Of a stretch of 64,000 nt of DNA, positions 40,060-48,746 are shown piece by piece. The notes under the pieces were generated by a model. It was not told the origin of the DNA, did no database searches, and was given only the letters and a program-made list of their open reading frames with translations. Every line of letters begins with the position of its first letter. Position 1 is the first letter of the stretch. The position numbers and the translations under genes were made by a program. The stretch spans positions 62,001 through 126,000 of the forward strand of contig JAHDCC010000009.1 of assembly GCA_020630065.1 (NCBI GenBank), in the 5' to 3' direction. The DNA comes from Acidimicrobiales bacterium. GTDB taxonomy: Bacteria; Actinomycetota; Acidimicrobiia; Acidimicrobiales; SZUA-35.

Positions 40060-41784
40060 TTATCGCTCCACTCGAAGAATCTGATTTCGTTTCGGCTCGT
40101 CTACCTGAATCCGATCACCGCTTAGATCGATGATCTCTATTTTTTCTATCTCAGCGTCGCCCAGCCCAACATGTACACGAGGGTCTTCACTTGACAGCCA
40201 GCTACTTCCAACAACGGTCCGTCTGGTATGTGTATCCCCGGCACTGGTAGTTACCACTATGCGCTGCCCCGGAGAGGGTGTACCCAGATCGATCGAAATC
40301 CAGTTCCCGCTCCCGGAACGGTTTTCGAGCAACAACATCGGCTGCCCAATTCCCGACAATGCTGCGTCTAGATCCCCGTCGTTGTCGTAATCGGCGACCG
40401 CCACTGCTCTGCCATTACGTTCGGCAACATCGTTCAACCCAACAAGACCGCTCATGTCGACAAATTCTGTCGGCCCGTTCGTGGTCGTGTTGGAGAAATA
40501 GCGGACCGCCTCGCTCGACCCAGATACGTCTTCGATCGGGATCGCGCCACTAGCGACGAGTAGGTCTTCGGTTCCGTCCAGGTCGAAATCTCCGAACGCC
40601 GAACCCCATCCGGTAGTGGTGTCTCCAAGAGCCGAAACGGCATCCATGCCGGGAACGAACCGGGTGTCGCTATAAATCGAAGAAAACGGGTCGGTGAGGA
40701 CACTGGCATGGCCTTGACCGGCGAGATTTGTGACGACAAAATCTGGGAGCTGGTCATCGTTTACGTCGGCGGATGCGATACCCATTCCACTGTTCGGGTC
40801 GTCGAGCCCAGAAGGTCCGCTTATTTCAACAAATTCACCAGTTTTGGTTAGGTCGTTTCGATACAGCCGGTTTGGCTGAGTGTCGTTAGCGATATGGATA
40901 TCCAGATCGCCGTCATTATCAACATCGGTTACCATGACCCCAAGACCGTACTCGTATCCATAGGGTTCCATACCGGAGATGGCAGCGACATCGTCGAATT
41001 GAGGCACGCCATTTATGTCGGCACCCCTGTTCAGGAGAACAGAATTTGCTACCGGCTCGAAGGTATTCGGAAACCCGGTTTGGGCTTGTGGCCGACGATT
41101 GTTCAGATCGGCATAACCAGCCACCACGAGATCTAAAAGCCCGTCGCCGTCGATATCTCCAACGGCAGCTCCAGTGTGCCAACCATAGAGATCCAGACCA
41201 GATTCCAGTGAGCGATCCGAGAAGGATTGACCGTCCTGATTGAGCAAAAGAACGTTCTCGCGTTGGGTCGTTACGTATAAATCGGTGTAGCCGTCACCGT
41301 TAAAGTCGGCGGCAACACAACCGTTGGCGCGTACCGCCAGATCGGCATCCCAAGCCTTAGACACATCGGTAAATGTTCCTGCGGTGTTTAGAAATAGCTT
41401 CGATGTTGGAGGGCCGCCCGATTCTTGCCAAAGACCCCATTCACCATCTGACCACGAGTTGGTGACAAACAGGTCCAACCACCCGTCCCGATCGATATCG
41501 ATCCAACAGAGGCCGCCACCCATCATGGCTCCTGGATCGGCGGAAACAGCGTCACGGAACGCTCCGTGAGTCATGTCGAGGCCAACGTCTGAAGCTACAT
41601 CAACAAACTTTAACTGACTGTGCCCATCGCGCGCTGGCCCTGCAGGCGCCGTGTAGCTAGCAGAGCTAGCCAACAAGCTTGCCAGAACAGACAAACCCGG
41701 GATGACTGAGACCACAACAACGACATGAACTAAGCGCCGAAGCTTCGCTCGTTTGTTCTGACTCAACCATCCCGGATATGTCAT
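40060..41784 (-). CDS. Exported FG-GAP/VCBS repeat protein
   Basis: 574 residues from ATG 41784, just past the permease stop; the frame extends to 41901 but would then overlap the permease by about 100 bases. A hydrophobic segment at residues about 18-40 (LVHVVVVVSVIPGLSVLASL) acts as signal or anchor. It is followed by at least six calcium-binding FG-GAP loops (DIDRDGWLDL, DFNGDGYTDL, DIDGDGLLDL, DVDNDGDLDI, DFDLDGTEDL, DYDNDGDLDA), a beta-propeller-like array, and an ASPIC/UnbV-like C-terminus. Such proteins bind surfaces or glycans. Its position directly after the sugar permease suggests it captures or presents the same substrate. Confidence 0.85.
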   Translation of the reverse strand: MTYPGWLSQNKRAKLRRLVHVVVVVSVIPGLSVLASLLASSASYTAPAGPARDGHSQLKFVDVASDVGLDMTHGAFRDAVSADPGAMMGGGLCWIDIDRDGWLDLFVTNSWSDGEWGLWQESGGPPTSKLFLNTAGTFTDVSKAWDADLAVRANGCVAADFNGDGYTDLYVTTQRENVLLLNQDGQSFSDRSLESGLDLYGWHTGAAVGDIDGDGLLDLVVAGYADLNNRRPQAQTGFPNTFEPVANSVLLNRGADINGVPQFDDVAAISGMEPYGYEYGLGVMVTDVDNDGDLDIHIANDTQPNRLYRNDLTKTGEFVEISGPSGLDDPNSGMGIASADVNDDQLPDFVVTNLAGQGHASVLTDPFSSIYSDTRFVPGMDAVSALGDTTTGWGSAFGDFDLDGTEDLLVASGAIPIEDVSGSSEAVRYFSNTTTNGPTEFVDMSGLVGLNDVAERNGRAVAVADYDNDGDLDAALSGIGQPMLLLENRSGSGNWISIDLGTPSPGQRIVVTTSAGDTHTRRTVVGSSWLSSEDPRVHVGLGDAEIEKIEIIDLSGDRIQVDEPKRNQILRVER

Positions 41785-41795
41785 CAGGGGGGAAA

Positions 41796-43040
41796 CTACG
41801 CTCGACCTGAACTCTGTCGAGTACGGCGACTGACAGTGTCCACGGTTACCGCTATTAGCAGGATTGCTCCCGTGACCATAAATTTCCGGTCGGACGGCCA
41901 ACCGAGCAAACCCATACCACTTTCAACCGATGCGATTACAAGAGCACCTTGAATCGCACTACTAATTTTGCCTCGACCTCCGAAGAGGCTCGTGCCTCCG
42001 ATGACGGCTCCTGCGATGGAGTTAAGAAGAAGGTTTCCTTCTCCCGCAGAGTTATCGACCGACCGGAGTCGGGAAGCAAGAACTAGTCCTCCAAGAACGG
42101 CCATAAACGAACCGATCATGAAACAAGCAATTTTGATGCGATCCACGTTGATACCTGCACGTCGGGACGCTTCTGCATTTCCTCCGACTGCGTAGATATA
42201 ACGACCAAAGTGAGTTCGTTCAGCAAATACGGTCAGAATGACAACAGCGGCACCTAGCAGGACGGTAATAAGTGGAAGTCCACGGTCATTGCCGGTTACT
42301 GCCACCACACCTAACACCATCACTGCGGCAAGAGAGGTGCGTGCGACATACATTGACCAGCTCTGTGCCGATAGGCCTTGTGACATTGCGTTGCGGTCTG
42401 AGAGGTAGTTCGTTACCGCATATATTGATATCGCACCAATCGCGATTGTCCAGGCAACACTTGGTTGCAGAAACGTGTTGGCAATACCGATTACCGAATC
42501 GTCCTGAACTCGGATTAGGCCTTGTTTGCCTGTTCCCGCTAGCACGACACCTCTACCTATGAAGAGGGTGGCCAAGGTTACGATCAGCGAGGGAACCCCG
42601 ATCTTGGCGACAAACCAGCCGTGAATACCACCGACCACGATGCCTACCAACAGAGCTAGACCTAGAGCGACGTACCAGGGCACTTCAGCCGTTCCGTCTG
42701 GGACGATAAGTCGAGCAATGATCACACCGCCCACACCTGCCATTGCGCCGACAGATAAATCGATCTCGCCGATCAACAGGACAAAGACGATCCCGGTTGA
42801 GATGGTAGCGATTGCCGCCATCTGAACCAGAAGGTTCGTGAGGTTCTGAGCCGATAGATACCGGTCGTTCTGGGCCTGGAAGAAGACTGCTATTAACACA
42901 AGACCAAGGACCACCGGAAGCGAGCCGATCTCACCTGATTTCAGGTTCTGAATCCAGCCCCGAGCGTTCTCGGCAAACGAAAGCCTTTTCCCGACAGGTG
43001 TGACGTTATTGTCGCCGTCAACTAGTTCAGTTATTGCCAT
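41796..43040 (-). CDS. Sugar ABC transporter permease (XylH/FrcC-like)
   Basis: 414 residues from ATG 43040, preferred over 43067 because an AGAGAG-like site precedes it. It is a monosaccharide permease of the RbsC/XylH type with LLIGEIDLSVGAMAGVGGV, VPSLIVTLATLFIGRGVVL, YAVGGNAEASRRAGINVDR (the ATPase-coupling loop) and NSIAGAVIGGTSLFGGRG. About ten membrane helices are evident. It overlaps the ATPase gene by 14 bases. The sugar is not determined by sequence; xylose, fructose, ribose and inositol are all possible in this family. Confidence 0.9.
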   Translation of the reverse strand: MAITELVDGDNNVTPVGKRLSFAENARGWIQNLKSGEIGSLPVVLGLVLIAVFFQAQNDRYLSAQNLTNLLVQMAAIATISTGIVFVLLIGEIDLSVGAMAGVGGVIIARLIVPDGTAEVPWYVALGLALLVGIVVGGIHGWFVAKIGVPSLIVTLATLFIGRGVVLAGTGKQGLIRVQDDSVIGIANTFLQPSVAWTIAIGAISIYAVTNYLSDRNAMSQGLSAQSWSMYVARTSLAAVMVLGVVAVTGNDRGLPLITVLLGAAVVILTVFAERTHFGRYIYAVGGNAEASRRAGINVDRIKIACFMIGSFMAVLGGLVLASRLRSVDNSAGEGNLLLNSIAGAVIGGTSLFGGRGKISSAIQGALVIASVESGMGLLGWPSDRKFMVTGAILLIAVTVDTVSRRTRQSSGRA

Positions 43041-43839
43041 TGTCTTCTCTCTCACCATCTCTGTCATCGGTCACTTGACCGGGAACATACTTCAACTGCC
43101 CAGCTGTTATCGCCTCGACGACCTGTTGTTGCGTAGTTTCGGTTTTGACGAGGTCTGCGACTTTTTGACCTAGTCGCAAGACCATAAATCGATCGGCTAT
43201 TTCGAATAGGTCGTGAAGGTTATGCGATATTACCAATACCCCGAGACCCTCGGCTGACAATCGGCGAACCAGTTCAAGAACCTGCCTGGTTTGAGCGACA
43301 CCTAACGCCGCTGTTGGTTCGTCGAGTATTACTGCTTTAGAGTTCCACATGACCGCTTTGGCCACGGCCACCGACTGACGCTGACCGCCAGATAGCTGAG
43401 CAATGTTCAAGTTGACAGAACCCAGTGTCGTCACCGATAGCCGTTTGAGGGTTTCCGCCGCCCGTCGCTGCATCGTGGCTTCATCTAGCAATCCGACGCC
43501 GTTTTTTTCTTCTCGTCCCAGGAACATATTTTGGGTCACGTTTAGATTGTCGCAAAGCGCCAGGTCTTGATAGACAACTTCGATACCCAGATCAGAGCTA
43601 TCTTTCGGATCATTGATCTGAACCGGTTGGCCTTGAAACTTAAATGTGCCAGTATCGACTTTGTAGTTACCTGAAATCGCTTTGATCAGTGTCGACTTTC
43701 CCGCTCCGTTGTCTCCCACTAAACCCAGCACTTCGCCTGGGTACAGCTCGAGATCCACGTCATAGAGGGCTTGCACCGAACCGAAACGCTTTGATACACC
43801 GCTGACTTCTAACAATGGCGTTTGGTCATGACCAGCCAT
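43027..43839 (-). CDS. Sugar ABC transporter ATPase, single domain (FrcA-like)
   Basis: 270 residues with one nucleotide-binding domain, unlike the usual two-domain XylG/RbsA. Walker A VGDNGAGKST (residues about 41-50), Q-loop VVYQDLALCDNLNVTQN, signature LSGGQRQ (149-155), Walker B VILDEPTAALG and H-loop VISHNLHDL are all intact. An AAGGAGG site precedes the start. It is strikingly similar to the ATPase domain at the head of the kinase encoded at 45924-48320, down to the unusual QDLALCxNLxVT block. It drives the permease encoded next. Confidence 0.92.
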   Translation of the reverse strand: MAGHDQTPLLEVSGVSKRFGSVQALYDVDLELYPGEVLGLVGDNGAGKSTLIKAISGNYKVDTGTFKFQGQPVQINDPKDSSDLGIEVVYQDLALCDNLNVTQNMFLGREEKNGVGLLDEATMQRRAAETLKRLSVTTLGSVNLNIAQLSGGQRQSVAVAKAVMWNSKAVILDEPTAALGVAQTRQVLELVRRLSAEGLGVLVISHNLHDLFEIADRFMVLRLGQKVADLVKTETTQQQVVEAITAGQLKYVPGQVTDDRDGEREDNGNN

Positions 43840-43956: not shown

Positions 43957-45105
43957 CTACTTGCAGAAGTCCAGCTCGACTACGTCTCCTGTGCAGATCT
44001 CTTCCTTGGTTCGGAAGCCATCAGCGATCACGGTTTCTTCTACGTTGTCAGCGGTTACTCGAACCGAATCAACGAGTATCGATGGGATATCGTTTGTGCC
44101 GTTGTTGGTGACATCGCCACTGTCAACTAGATCTTCCGCACCGGTACTTATAAGGGCCAAAGCCAATTCAGCAGCTGCGTTAGCTTCCAAGTTGATCGGC
44201 TTATATACCGTCATGTATTGGTCGCCGAGCAGGATGTTCTGAATGCCGCCTTCGGTTGCATCTTGACCGGTTACCGGTACTTGAAGACCTTGAGCCTTCA
44301 ATGCAGCGATAACGCCACCGGCCATACCGTCGTTGGCTACAATCGCAGCGTCAACTTCGTTATTGGCTTCGGTCAGAATCTGTTCTGCAATGGTCTGGGC
44401 CTGAGCGTTGTCCCAGTCTGGGACTGCTTGTTTACTGACCAGATTCCAAGTGCCGTCATCAAATTTCGGTTGAGCAACCGACATGTAGCCCTCGGCGAAC
44501 AACGTTGCGTTGTTGTCTGTTGGGCCACCGTCGAGAATCATAACGTTTGGAACACCATCAAAGTCAGCTAAGGCATCTTCCATAGCTCGACCCATGTTGA
44601 TTCCAACTGCGACGTTGTCGAAACTTACGTAGTAGTCGGCTCCTGGGCCTTCGGCGGTCAGGCGATCATAGTCGATGACCTTAGCGCCAGCTTCACGTGC
44701 CATATCGATGATGGCGGCACCAGAACCGGAGTCAAGGTTAACCATCATCAGAACGGTCGCACCATCGGTGATGGCAGACTCAGCCTGTGACTGCATCGTC
44801 GAAGCGTCACCTTCAGCGTTCGAGATTGTGAAGTCTTCACCTTCGGTGAGTCCAGCTTCCTCGAAAGCCGCTTTTAGTAATCGTCGATCGTCGTTTTCCC
44901 ACCGAGCCGACGAAGCAGAATCGGGAAGCAAGACCGCGATCTTGCCGTCGTACTCGCCAGACGATGAATCATCCGATGTGTCGTCGGTAGTTGGATCGTC
45001 TCCGCTAGTCGTATCCGAGCCAGTTTCCCCACTGTCGGAACTACAAGCAGCAGCAACCATGCTCAGTGCGAATAACATCGCCATGAGCTTGAAAATATGC
45101 TTCAT
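43957..45105 (-). CDS. Sugar ABC transporter substrate-binding lipoprotein (XylF-like)
   Basis: 382 residues from ATG 45105, which has an AGGAGGGG ribosome-binding site. A lipoprotein signal ends at MVAAAC, followed by a Ser/Asp/Thr-rich linker of about 35 residues. The type-I periplasmic-binding fold follows: KIAVLLPDSASSARWENDD, DGATVLMMVNLDSGSG, KVIDYDRLTAEGPGADYYVS and IVANDGMAGGVIAAL, closest in feel to XylF. It captures the sugar and passes it to the permease. The tail ICTGDVVELDFCK has two cysteines that may form a disulfide. Confidence 0.92.
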   Translation of the reverse strand: MKHIFKLMAMLFALSMVAAACSSDSGETGSDTTSGDDPTTDDTSDDSSSGEYDGKIAVLLPDSASSARWENDDRRLLKAAFEEAGLTEGEDFTISNAEGDASTMQSQAESAITDGATVLMMVNLDSGSGAAIIDMAREAGAKVIDYDRLTAEGPGADYYVSFDNVAVGINMGRAMEDALADFDGVPNVMILDGGPTDNNATLFAEGYMSVAQPKFDDGTWNLVSKQAVPDWDNAQAQTIAEQILTEANNEVDAAIVANDGMAGGVIAALKAQGLQVPVTGQDATEGGIQNILLGDQYMTVYKPINLEANAAAELALALISTGAEDLVDSGDVTNNGTNDIPSILVDSVRVTADNVEETVIADGFRTKEEICTGDVVELDFCK

Positions 45106-45231
45106 TTCCCCTCCTAAAGTTAATTTCCACCAACACGCATGTGTCGGTAGTCTCACAGTAACCCCAGAGCTAATAACGACTTAGAAAGAAAGTGACGCCT
45201 GCCATAAACAACCTATAAATGTTCAGAAACC
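45106..45231 (-). promoter_or_regulatory. Gap between response regulator and sugar transporter genes, likely promoter region
   Basis: This 126-base AT-rich gap is the only break between the kinase/regulator pair and the transporter genes, so it probably carries the promoter that the response regulator controls. TGTTCAG occurs at 45220-45226 and 45236-45242 (period 16), the second copy lying in the regulator's last codons. I see no longer repeat, and no promoter element I would assign confidently. Confidence 0.35.
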
Positions 45232-45927
45232 CTACTGTTCAGGCGGAATTAGGCGGTAGCCGGCTCGAGGTTCTGTTACGATCAGGGTTTCTTCGCCGTC
45301 ATATTCGAGCTTCGCTCGGAGACGGCCGACGTAAACCCGGACGTATTCGCGTGAATTTTCGTAGCCTCGACCCCAAACCTCTCGGAGTAATCGCTCGTAG
45401 GTCAACAGTACACCAGGGTTGAGCGCCAGATAACGAAGCAACGCATATTCGGTTGGCGTTAGCTGAATTCGCTCGCCGTTGCGTTGAACCAACTTGGCTT
45501 CAAGGTCGATTTCGAGGTCACCGAATTTAAGAATGGTGTCCTGGCTGACCGGTTCGACGATACGAGATCGCCGAAGTGTTGCCACCATTCGAGCCAGCAG
45601 CTCATCGATGCCGAATGGTTTAGTGATGTAGTCGTCTGCGCCGAGATTAAGGGCCCGAACCTTATCGATCTCGCCTGTTCTCGCCGAGACCACGATAAGC
45701 CCAACATCTGATCGCTCACGAATGCTTCGACACAAGTCAAATCCGCTGGTGTCGGGAAGACCCAAGTCGAGCAACACAATGGCGGGATCGAATTGTTCCA
45801 GCATCTGTTCTACATCGGATCCGGTGGTTGATACTTCGACCCGGTAACCCCTCGCCATCAAATTTGATCGAACAAGGTCAACAATATTTGGGTCATCTTC
45901 GACGAGAAGGACACATGTTTCGGTCAC
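45232..45927 (-). CDS. OmpR-family response regulator (KdpE-like)
   Basis: 231 residues. Receiver domain with acidic pocket LLVEDDPNIV, phosphoacceptor Asp in AIVLLDLGLPD, conserved Ser in VVSARTG and Lys in YITKPFG. The C-terminal winged helix has LTPTEYALLRYLALNPG and YVRVYVGRLRAKLE. KdpE-like proteins have the same SREYVRVYVG recognition-helix form. It overlaps the kinase gene by ATGA and is its evident partner, with the sugar transporter as the likely regulon. Confidence 0.94.
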   Translation of the reverse strand: MTETCVLLVEDDPNIVDLVRSNLMARGYRVEVSTTGSDVEQMLEQFDPAIVLLDLGLPDTSGFDLCRSIRERSDVGLIVVSARTGEIDKVRALNLGADDYITKPFGIDELLARMVATLRRSRIVEPVSQDTILKFGDLEIDLEAKLVQRNGERIQLTPTEYALLRYLALNPGVLLTYERLLREVWGRGYENSREYVRVYVGRLRAKLEYDGEETLIVTEPRAGYRLIPPEQ

Positions 45928-48320
45928 TGCGACTCCGGTTCGGTAGGCAACGAGATTCTGACGGTACTACCTTCCCTCGTTGATTCGGCTTCGATTGTTC
46001 CGCCGTGAGCTCGAATAAAACCTCGAACAATTCGGATACCAAACCCTGACGCCGAATCGAGTTCTTCGATAACCCCGTTGAGGTACTTGATGACGTCGGA
46101 CGGCATGCCGGGACCGTCGTCGACGATTTGGGCGGTAACCACCGAGCTTGAAGGTTGTCGACCGGTGACTCGAATGTTTGTGTCTACTCCCCCGTGTTTG
46201 ACCGAGTTGCCGATCAGGTTAATAAATACTTGCTCTAGCCGGTCGCTGTCACCCCAAACGGCTAGCGACGGTGGGAAATCAAGCTCGATATTTTGTGGCC
46301 CTACCACCTGCACGGCTCGATCTATCGCCGCGCTCACGTTGTTGTAATCTTGGTGAAGAGCGAACGTTCCCGACTCCATCGCCGAGGTGTCAAACAGGTT
46401 GTCGACTAGTCGACTGAGCCTTCCCGACTCTGCTTCGATCGTCGCCAAAAACCTTTTCCGATCAGATTCAGTCCAGTCGATATCGTCGCGCAGCAAGGTC
46501 GAAGAGAACCCTTTGATTGCCGTCAGCGGCGTGCGTAATTCGTGGCCGAGTCGCCGAGTTAGGTTTCGTTGGAGTTCCTGCCCTTGACGTAACGAATCAG
46601 CTTCACGTTCTGACGCGATCACTAAGCCTCGTTCCAACGCTAGTCGAAACGAGTTAGCGGCACCATCAAGGGTCGCTTTCGCTCCGGGGGTAGGCGTCGA
46701 TCTATCACTCCACCAAACCAACAACACGGCGTCGCCGCGAGACCAACCAAATACAGATTCCAATGTCACCAGCCCGGTCCGATCCGACGGCTGAGTAACC
46801 GGCAGCCCTGTAGTTCCAGGTCGGGGTGAACCACGGTGTTCCTCTAGAGCTGACTTAGCGTTGTTCATCAACAAATCATGGGGAACTGCGCCAGAAAGCC
46901 CAGACAAGTTTGATGTAGCCCAACGGGTCATCATCGAACCGTCGCTTTCGTACAGCACTGCGAGATCACAAGCAATGCCCGAACACACCGCGTCTAAGGC
47001 TGCTTCGAGGCCTTCGCCCGGCAGGTCCGGGCCAGCGAACACCTCCAGGACGCCTTGCAAACTTCGCAACGATCTCACGTTTACGCTCAGCGACTCGACC
47101 AGTTCTCCTCGCTCGATGGCGGCACCCGCCATGGTCGAGAATAGTTCTAGTAGTTGGATCTGTTCTGTTTGTAGTCGTGCTATGCCGTCGGTGAATCCTA
47201 CGATGACGGCTAGTGTTCCTTCCTGCCCGATGATGGGGGCCGCCCACGCTCCTATCGAACCTAAACCAACTGAGATCTCGGCTAATGTGTCGTCGATTTC
47301 TATTGCCAAATTGGGGACTACGACTATTTCTTCCTCAGCTACCGCTCGCCCTAAGAAACCTTGGCCCGGTTCAATCGCCAGTCGAGTTGCACGGTCTTCG
47401 AAATTCTCGGGCAGGTTTAATGTCGCAGTACAGCGAAGAACCTGATGTCCCCCCGACGCTTCCGGCATAAAGATCGCGACCTGGTTCGAGTGAAGCGATT
47501 CGGACAAAGACGCAACCGTCAGCGGCAATACAGACCCTGCATCAGCGGATGCTAATTGTTCAGACAAGCTATGTAGGCGACGCAGCTGCTGGCCTGCCGT
47601 CGAGTCGGCCTCTGTGCCGGTCATCAAACTTATGACATCGTCGGGGTGGGTTTCGACCCGATACAGGTCAGCGACTGAACGGCCTTGCCGCAACACGACA
47701 ATCCGGTCCGAAACTTCAAACACCTCGTCGAGTCGATGCGAAACAAGCAGGATCGAAACGCCTCGTCGTTGAAGGTTGCGGATTACTTCGAGCACGGTTC
47801 GACTTTCCAGTACTCCTAGCGCTGAGGTTGGTTCGTCGAGAACCAGCACTTCTGGCAGCTCTAAGGTCGCTCGAGCTATCGCCACCAACTGGCGTTGCCC
47901 ACCGCTGAGGCGGTGGATTGGAAAGTCAAGTGGAGGAATTTCGACGCCGAGGTTACGAAAGATGGTCCCGGCGACCGCCCTCATTTTTGGTTCTAAAAGA
48001 GCGCTGCCCTTTCTCAGTTCACGACCGAGGAAAAGGTTTGATGTGACATCAAGGTTCTCACACAGTGCTAGGTCTTGCCATACGATTGAGACGCCTTGAG
48101 CGATAACATCTTTGGGGGTTTTGCCGAGCGGTTTGCCTCCTACCAGCATCTGACCCGCGTCGGCGTTGAGGCTCTGGGCGAGACACCGCACCAGCGTCGA
48201 TTTACCTGCACCGTTTTCACCGACAAGAGATACTACTTCGCCTGGGCCGACAGAGAACGACACATCGTCTAATGCTCGCACCAGTCCAAACTTCTTCGAA
48301 ACACCAGTGAATTCAAGCAT
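45924..48320 (-). CDS. Hybrid sugar-ABC ATPase / GAF / histidine kinase
   Basis: 798 residues in one frame with a GAGGGG ribosome-binding site. Residues 1-235 are a complete sugar-importer ATPase: Walker A VGENGAGKST (33-42), Q-loop VWQDLALCENLDVT (80-93), signature LSGGQRQ (138-144), Walker B VLVLDEPTSALG (158-169) and H-loop SHRLDEV (H195). Two GAF-like domains follow (about 262-405 and 425-565), then HisKA (H593 in LGHELRTPLTA) and HATPase (N705 in GNSVKHG, DDGPGMP, GFGIRIV). All catalytic residues for both ATPase and kinase are present. There is no membrane segment, so membrane contact would come through the permease. It is paired with the response regulator by ATGA overlap and lies upstream of the matching transporter. 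The role as a transporter-coupled sensor is inference. Confidence 0.92.
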   Translation of the reverse strand: MLEFTGVSKKFGLVRALDDVSFSVGPGEVVSLVGENGAGKSTLVRCLAQSLNADAGQMLVGGKPLGKTPKDVIAQGVSIVWQDLALCENLDVTSNLFLGRELRKGSALLEPKMRAVAGTIFRNLGVEIPPLDFPIHRLSGGQRQLVAIARATLELPEVLVLDEPTSALGVLESRTVLEVIRNLQRRGVSILLVSHRLDEVFEVSDRIVVLRQGRSVADLYRVETHPDDVISLMTGTEADSTAGQQLRRLHSLSEQLASADAGSVLPLTVASLSESLHSNQVAIFMPEASGGHQVLRCTATLNLPENFEDRATRLAIEPGQGFLGRAVAEEEIVVVPNLAIEIDDTLAEISVGLGSIGAWAAPIIGQEGTLAVIVGFTDGIARLQTEQIQLLELFSTMAGAAIERGELVESLSVNVRSLRSLQGVLEVFAGPDLPGEGLEAALDAVCSGIACDLAVLYESDGSMMTRWATSNLSGLSGAVPHDLLMNNAKSALEEHRGSPRPGTTGLPVTQPSDRTGLVTLESVFGWSRGDAVLLVWWSDRSTPTPGAKATLDGAANSFRLALERGLVIASEREADSLRQGQELQRNLTRRLGHELRTPLTAIKGFSSTLLRDDIDWTESDRKRFLATIEAESGRLSRLVDNLFDTSAMESGTFALHQDYNNVSAAIDRAVQVVGPQNIELDFPPSLAVWGDSDRLEQVFINLIGNSVKHGGVDTNIRVTGRQPSSSVVTAQIVDDGPGMPSDVIKYLNGVIEELDSASGFGIRIVRGFIRAHGGTIEAESTREGSTVRISLPTEPESQ

Positions 48321-48338: not shown

Positions 48339-48746
48339 TCAGTTTCCGAATCGTTCGTTCTCCAGATAGCACTGCTCATACCACCGGTCGTTCCATCCCC
48401 GAGCATCACCTCGAGCCTCAACTTCTGCGCTGATATCTCGATATGCCGGCATCCAGCTCCGATGGTTTTTTAGCCCCGCCCAGAAGTCAGGAATGTAATG
48501 CATAAGGTAGCCGACGACGCCAAGTTCTGCCCATTGTCGGACGTGAACTAGTTCGTGGGCCAACAATGTCGACGTACCCCGTGGGCATGTCGACTTTCCA
48601 AGAAAAACGAATCGACCCAACGTGATTCCGTGGAAAGGTCCTCCTACCGGCGGTAGCCGGATCACGCGAACGCGGCGGGCTAACTCGACCGGAAGAACGT
48701 CGTATGATTCGATCTCGACTTCAGACAGTTTTCTGATAATTGGCAC
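48339..48746 (-). CDS. Small putative zinc metallopeptidase (DUF4157-like HExxH)
   Basis: 135 residues. LLAHELVHVRQWAELG contains HELVH followed by RQW, the pattern of DUF4157-like or related minigluzincin proteins; a glutamate further on (ISAEVEARGDARGW) may be the third ligand. There is no signal peptide. It is the first gene on the minus strand before the hybrid kinase (18-base gap) and is probably cotranscribed with it. No substrate is evident. Confidence 0.72.
   Translation of the reverse strand: MPIIRKLSEVEIESYDVLPVELARRVRVIRLPPVGGPFHGITLGRFVFLGKSTCPRGTSTLLAHELVHVRQWAELGVVGYLMHYIPDFWAGLKNHRSWMPAYRDISAEVEARGDARGWNDRWYEQCYLENERFGN

What the first reader, a model, noticed from the sequence alone, without database searches (positions are those of the whole stretch)
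45924..48320. Sugar-importer ABC ATPase fused to a GAF-GAF histidine kinase
Seen: one 798-residue frame carries a full ABC ATPase (Walker A, Q-loop, LSGGQ, Walker B Glu, H-loop) and then two GAF-like domains and an intact HisKA-HATPase. Established: in known transporter-linked two-component systems, for example the Bce type, the kinase senses transporter activity through separate proteins. Inference: here the kinase itself is an ATPase subunit, able to dock on the permease and report transport state through GAF domains to the His. I know of no well-characterised example of this architecture.
Basis: partly seen in the sequence, partly recalled or inferred. Interest (0 to 1): 0.93.

Follow-up and report, generated by a model that had tools for sequence, protein, structure and literature searches.

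The report
Sensor kinase built on sugar-importer ATPase
A conserved family of bacterial sensor kinases carries, as its input domain, a copy of the motor (ATPase) subunit of the sugar importer encoded next to it, so the cell probably reads the importer directly by plugging a signalling kinase into the motor's socket.

Summary
One 798-aa minus-strand ORF joins a CUT2/FrcA-type ABC ATPase to a GAF pair, HisKA and HATPase. It is not an assembly accident: 29 distinct single-frame fusions (window included) were found in Actinomycetota, one in Conexibacter sp. S30A1, all with an OmpR-type regulator next door. Where the contig is long enough there is also an XylF/ChvE-type binding protein, usually a separate stand-alone ATPase (25 of 27), and a permease.

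(1) The operon already has its own ATPase, so the fused copy is not the obvious motor. (2) The GAF domains are dispensable: one lineage keeps only a mini-GAF, and L095 joins the ABC domain to the phospho-histidine across 29 residues. (3) Fused copies lose catalytic motifs (signature 10/29, H-loop 6/29; partners 0/25) while keeping Walker A and, nearly always, the Q-loop/coupling-helix face.

Conserved 11-bp direct repeats before the binding-protein gene (8.8 versus 0.05 per kb) suggest the regulator controls the importer.

Best explanation: the kinase dimer docks its ABC pair on the permease dimer in place of the ATPase, reads its conformation, and drives importer expression. Docking, signal sign and substrate are inferred. 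No description of this architecture was found in the papers searched.

The parts
45924..48320 (-). Fusion protein, 798 aa: ABC ATPase domain (1-234), bridging helix (241-258), GAF1 (263-402), GAF-like unit 2 (about 435-537), HisKA (584-651, phospho-acceptor H593), HATPase (690-794)
   Evidence: ORF and translation; Pfam; AlphaFold2 model; 28 homologues
47619..48320 (-). ABC ATPase domain of the fusion (residues 1-234), CUT2/FrcA type, all catalytic motifs intact in the window copy
   Evidence: Pfam, NCBIfam best hits AraG/XylG/YtfR, motif alignment
48018..48086 (-). Q-loop and coupling-helix groove (residues 79-101, IVWQDLALCENLDVTSNLFLGRE), the face expected to meet the permease
   Evidence: Alignment with partner ATPases; that this segment faces the permease is established for ABC importers generally
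46710..47534 (-). GAF1 and GAF-like unit 2 (residues 263-537), present in most members but reduced in L034-L036 and absent in L095
   Evidence: Pfam, model, reduced forms
45927..46571 (-). Histidine kinase core (residues 584-798)
   Evidence: Pfam; invariant His, Asn and Gly boxes
45232..45927 (-). OmpR-type response regulator, 231 aa, overlapping the fusion gene by 4 nt
   Evidence: Response_reg and Trans_reg_C; next to the fusion in all 29 members
45204..45220 (-). Probable regulator box ATTTATAGGTTGTTTAT, an 11-bp direct repeat (weak copy of GTTNAYN5GTTNAY)
   Evidence: 24 of 27 loci, 8.8 per kb in this gap against 0.05 per kb elsewhere; window copy alone matched by 13 of 200 shuffles
43957..45156 (-). 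Sugar-binding protein (Peripla_BP_4; nearest XylF and ChvE), lipoprotein-like
   Evidence: Pfam; NCBIfam XylF 224 bits, below its cut-off of 390
43027..43839 (-). Separate stand-alone ABC ATPase of the importer, 270 aa, all motifs canonical
   Evidence: Pfam; partner ATPases 25/25 canonical at signature and H-loop
41796..43067 (-). Permease (BPD_transp_2; nearest GguB), 423 aa
   Evidence: Pfam; NCBIfam GguB 231 bits, below its cut-off of 450

Best explanation
This is a transporter-reading sensor kinase that uses a copy of the importer's ATPase as its input domain. The kinase dimer presents two ABC domains, which dock on the permease dimer at the site otherwise used by the operon's own stand-alone ATPase. 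Sugar-loaded binding protein acting on the permease changes the state of the ABC pair (open or closed, ATP-bound or not). That motion passes through the bridging helix to the HisKA helices, with the GAF pair as an optional modulator in between, and switches phosphorylation of the OmpR-type regulator. The regulator binds 11-bp direct repeats ahead of the binding-protein, ATPase and permease genes and adjusts importer production. As stand-alone ATPase accumulates it could displace the kinase from the permease and close the loop. Shown here: domains, conservation, operon, motif loss and retention, dispensable GAFs, the repeats. Inferred: docking, kinase-kinase occupancy of the permease, direction of the signal, identity of the sugar, displacement feedback.
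For: Single-frame fusion conserved in 29 members, always beside a regulator and, where visible, the same importer. Fused ABC domains and partner ATPases form two non-mixing groups with correlated distances, i.e. long co-inheritance. Q-loop/coupling segment shared with partners at 0.63 identity against 0.30 outside the motifs. Motor residues lost in fused copies (signature 10/29, H-loop 6/29) but in 0/25 partners, while Walker A Lys is kept 29/29 and Q-loop Gln 28/29. GAFs reduced (L034-L036) or absent (L095) with the ABC domain kept. No transmembrane segment or periplasmic sensor, unlike a two-TM kinase of the same genome. L065 and L101 have no stand-alone ATPase near, leaving the fused domain as the only one in the operon. 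Conserved regulator-type repeats before the binding-protein gene.
Against: No docking or interaction was measured or modelled; only single-chain prediction was available. In the window copy and most members the ATPase motifs are intact, so it may still hydrolyse ATP. The coupling segment has drifted relative to partners slightly more than the domain average (ratio 1.9 against 1.4), and no same-operon matching was seen (0.632 against 0.625). L101 has lost the Q-loop Gln. Most members keep both GAFs.
Confidence: 0.55

Rival explanations
1. Mixed-dimer flux sensor: the fused ABC domain pairs with the stand-alone ATPase on the permease, takes part in ATP hydrolysis, and reports actual transport turnover.
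For: Window and most members keep all catalytic motifs; 25 of 27 operons encode both ATPases.
Against: HisKA kinases dimerise, which brings two fused ABC domains together; L095 has only 29 residues between ABC and phospho-His; L065 and L101 lack a partner ATPase in the operon; signature and H-loop loss in several lineages would spoil both sites of a mixed dimer.
Confidence: 0.2
2. GAF ligand sensor with a tether: the GAF pair binds a cytoplasmic sugar metabolite or nucleotide, and the ABC domain merely holds the kinase at the membrane or is a relic.
For: Most members, the window included, keep a GAF found by Pfam.
Against: GAFs are reduced to a small sheet in L034-L036 and absent in L095, with the operon and regulator boxes intact; the ABC domain is the constant part.
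Confidence: 0.13
3. Soluble nucleotide sensor: the ABC pair never meets the permease and instead reads ATP or ADP, tuning the kinase to energy state.
For: Walker A Lys and Walker B Asp are retained in 29/29; no transmembrane segment.
Against: Retention of the FrcA-type coupling segment without a permease partner would need another reason; strict linkage to one importer operon.
Confidence: 0.1

Closest known systems
BceAB-BceRS and PstSCAB-PhoU-PhoR transporter-linked two-component systems (PMC6978683)
   Same: An ABC transporter's state controls a histidine kinase whose regulator controls the transporter's own genes.
   Different: There the kinase is a separate membrane protein, linked by contact (BceS) or by PhoU; here the kinase itself carries an ATPase-type domain and has no transmembrane segment.
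SLC5/STAC histidine kinases CbrA and CrbS (PMC7096432, PMC9100948, PMC13022988)
   Same: Transporter and kinase parts in one polypeptide; proposed to integrate transport and signalling.
   Different: The fused part is a whole secondary transporter in the membrane; here it is only the motor-type domain of a multi-subunit ABC importer, beside a separate true motor.
MalK-MalT regulation by the maltose importer (general knowledge, not read here)
   Same: The ATPase subunit is the signalling surface of a sugar importer.
   Different: MalK is the working motor and binds a separate regulator; here a second copy of the ATPase is fused to a kinase.
CUT2 monosaccharide importers (FrcA, XylG, MglA, AraG, GguAB)
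   Same: Binding protein, permease and both ABC domains belong to this class by profile scores.
   Different: No CUT2 importer known to me has a second ATPase fused to a kinase; scores are far below the equivalog cut-offs, so the substrate is not assigned.

Membership tests
CUT2/FrcA-type sugar ABC ATPase (the ABC domain) | Best profile matches are CUT2 sugar ATPases | tested here: met
   AraG, xylose PRK13549, YtfR, XylG, MglA, RbsA, GguA are the top seven NCBIfam matches; all below cut-offs set for tandem 500-aa proteins
CUT2/FrcA-type sugar ABC ATPase (the ABC domain) | All catalytic motifs intact | tested here: met
   Met in the window copy; lost in part in 10 (signature) and 6 (H-loop) of 29 members
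CUT2/FrcA-type sugar ABC ATPase (the ABC domain) | Binds the permease and powers transport | not testable with these tools
   No complex prediction or experiment available
HisKA-type histidine kinase of an OmpR-type two-component system | HisKA with phospho-His, HATPase with N, G1 and G2 boxes, cognate OmpR-type regulator | tested here: met
   regulator gene overlaps by 4 nt
Bce-type transporter-linked two-component system | Separate intramembrane-sensing kinase with two TM helices and a BceAB exporter | tested here: not met
   No TM segment; importer with BPD_transp_2 permease and binding protein
SLC5/STAC transporter-kinase (CbrA type) | SLC5 membrane domain and STAC domain in the kinase | tested here: not met
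   Pfam finds neither in the window protein or in the 22 other members scanned
GAF-domain sensor kinase | GAF domain required as input | tested here: not met
   GAF present in the window copy and in most members, but reduced in L034-L036 and absent in L095

The most novel reading that the evidence does not exclude
A hitherto undescribed receptor class: a histidine-kinase dimer that takes the place of the ATPase dimer on an ABC importer's permease, turning a share of the importers into sugar receptors while the stand-alone ATPase runs the rest, with competition between the two setting expression. In operons without a second ATPase (L065, L101) the whole importer would have become a receptor.
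Probability: 0.4. Interest if true: 0.93.

Novelty: new variant of a known kind. Interest (0 to 1): 0.82.

Why it matters
How transporter activity is passed to sensor kinases is a long-standing question, studied mostly in systems where transporter and kinase are separate membrane proteins. Here a motor-type docking domain has been joined to the kinase and, in sister lineages, nearly everything between them has been removed. L095 (ABC domain, 29 residues, phospho-histidine) is a minimal soluble module in which coupling between an ABC domain and a kinase can be tested biochemically. It would also be a ready-made part for sugar-responsive circuits.

Tried and rejected
Assembly or frame artefact: rejected by 28 homologous single-frame fusions. 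Substrate assignment: not possible, as all binding-protein, permease and ATPase profile scores are below cut-off. Relatives outside Actinomycetota: the genome-contig scan (patterns from the window protein alone, so close relatives only) returned ATPases without a kinase from other phyla, e.g. Myxococcaceae L033; absence of the fusion elsewhere is not shown. Operon-specific matching of fused and partner ATPase in the groove: same-operon identity 0.632 against 0.625 for other operons, no signal, so the surface is generic FrcA type. Groove specially protected against drift: not supported, divergence ratio 1.9 against 1.4 overall. Sigma-70 promoter and terminator scans: at or below chance. Whole-model PDB search with VIA-align was filled by the ABC domain, so it says nothing about the GAF region. 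Literature searches aimed at an ABC-ATPase/kinase fusion or unusual kinase architecture turned up no description in the hits listed, nor did one on transceptors; most hits were judged from title and abstract only, and only open-licence papers are held.

Full report
Observation. The ORF at 45924-48320 is on the minus strand, starts with ATG and codes for 798 aa. Pfam places ABC_tran at 17-166, GAF at 263-402, HisKA at 584-651 and HATPase_c at 690-794, all above the curated cut-offs. The ABC domain has every catalytic motif, and the kinase has its phospho-His (H593) and N, G1 and G2 boxes. AlphaFold2 (mean pLDDT 79.5; pTM 0.38, so domain arrangement is not reliable) gives ABC 1-234, a helix 241-258, GAF1, a long helix 385-428, a second GAF-like unit 435-537, and a helix 547-610 running into HisKA. 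The second GAF rests on the model and on bacteriophytochrome kinases as best whole-chain Foldseek matches; Pfam does not call it. No clear transmembrane segment is seen by hydropathy.

Operon. On the minus strand the order is: fusion 48320-45924, OmpR-type regulator 45927-45232 (4-nt overlap), lipoprotein-like binding protein 45156-43957, separate 270-aa ABC ATPase 43839-43027, permease 43067-41796. Profiles place the importer among monosaccharide (CUT2) systems, nearest XylF/ChvE, GguB and AraG/RbsA, but all below equivalog cut-offs, so no sugar is assigned. The host genome has this fusion once.

Conservation. A scan of 84,980 species genomes with patterns from the window protein and searches of Acidimicrobiia-class relatives (10 of 395 genomes), an Actinomycetota sample, the class of Conexibacter and a third class (4 of 66) gave 29 distinct full-length fusions including the window, each in one open frame, plus one cut by a contig end (L061). 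One is Conexibacter sp. S30A1, a complete chromosome (L035; Thermoleophilia). The regulator gene is next to all of them; binding protein and permease follow where the contig allows; a stand-alone ATPase is present in 25 of the 27 operons that can be judged. L065 and L101 have none nearby, although G630 (the genome of L065) carries a 66%-identical ATPase elsewhere, and the contig and genome of L101 are incomplete. Fused ABC domains and partner ATPases separate completely on the tree (100/99) and their distance matrices correlate (r 0.69), so they have travelled together since an early event.

What evolution kept and lost. In fused copies Walker A Lys and Walker B Asp are kept in 29/29 and Q-loop Gln and catalytic Glu in 28/29, but the signature is non-canonical in 10/29 and the H-loop His is lost in 6/29; all 25 partners are canonical at both (Fisher p 0.001 for the signature, relatedness not corrected). 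The Q-loop and coupling segment (79-101) is about 63% identical between fused and partner domains against about 30% outside the motifs, and the six His-less copies still match 16-21 of 23 consensus positions. A fair caveat: relative to partners this segment has drifted somewhat more than the domain average (ratio 1.9 against 1.4), so it is retained, not specially protected, and there is no same-operon matching signal.

Natural deletions. Between ABC and phospho-His most members have about 300-400 residues (two GAFs); L034-L036 have 145, modelled for L035 as a mini-GAF sheet; L095, on a 3.6-Mb contig with an intact operon and exact regulator boxes, has 29. L095 has signature LNLGE and H-loop TRD yet keeps VVWQDLALCDSLDVAANLLLGRE. 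The GAFs are therefore not the essential input; the ABC domain is the constant one.

Output. In the gap between regulator and binding-protein genes, GTTNAYN5GTTNAY repeats (11-bp period, usual for the OmpR/PhoB family from general knowledge; often two pairs 31-32 bp apart) occur in 24 of 27 loci, 8.8 per kb against 0.05 per kb in the rest of the same loci, and 45 against 4.8 expected in shuffles, the 11-bp period being the best of eight tested. The pattern was found in these same data; the window copy alone is weak (13 of 200 shuffles as good). The simplest reading is that the regulator controls binding protein, ATPase and permease.

Mechanism. HisKA kinases work as dimers and the single permease gene implies a permease homodimer with two ATPase sites (established knowledge of both families). 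A kinase dimer offering two ABC domains fits those two sites. A soluble kinase that keeps an ATPase docking face and a nucleotide site, while losing hydrolysis motifs in several lineages, is best explained as a docking and conformation sensor. Rivals are a mixed kinase/ATPase pair, a GAF-ligand sensor tethered by the ABC domain, and a soluble nucleotide sensor. Docking has not been shown.

Known relatives. BceAB-BceRS and PstSCAB-PhoU-PhoR link ABC transporters to kinases through separate proteins (PMC6978683). CbrA and CrbS fuse a secondary transporter to a kinase (PMC7096432, PMC9100948, PMC13022988). MalK-MalT uses the ATPase as the signalling surface (general knowledge). None of these has an ATPase copy fused to the kinase beside the real motor. 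The literature searches found no description of the architecture, within an open-licence library only, so earlier annotation in protein databases or subscription papers cannot be excluded.

Noticed in passing
window 40060-41901 (-): FG-GAP/ASPIC-UnbV repeat protein follows the permease; its likely start is the ATG near 41784 rather than the TTG at 41901. A homologue follows the permease in L025, L066 and L100 too, so a surface protein may belong to the operon in this branch.
   Followed up: partly
window 48339-48746 (-): 135-aa gene with a HELVHVRQW metallopeptidase-like motif and a weak eCIS_core match, 18 nt upstream of the fusion; no homologue was found beside the other fusions.
   Followed up: partly
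L067 (G000:C75:166000-184000): Same genome: a second sugar importer of the same ATPase type with an isomerase-like and an FGGY kinase gene but no fused kinase; further along, a conventional two-TM GAF-PAS kinase, OmpR-type regulator and Peripla_BP_6 binding protein.
   Followed up: partly
L065:4702-10276 and L101:3129-8584: Fusion, regulator, binding protein and permease with no stand-alone ATPase between or near them; L101 has also lost Q-loop Gln, signature and H-loop residues. Possibly importers turned into pure receptors.
   Followed up: partly
L057:10611-15305: Unusual arrangement: two permease-like genes flank an ATPase and a binding protein, and the ATPase falls outside the usual partner group on the tree.
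   Followed up: no
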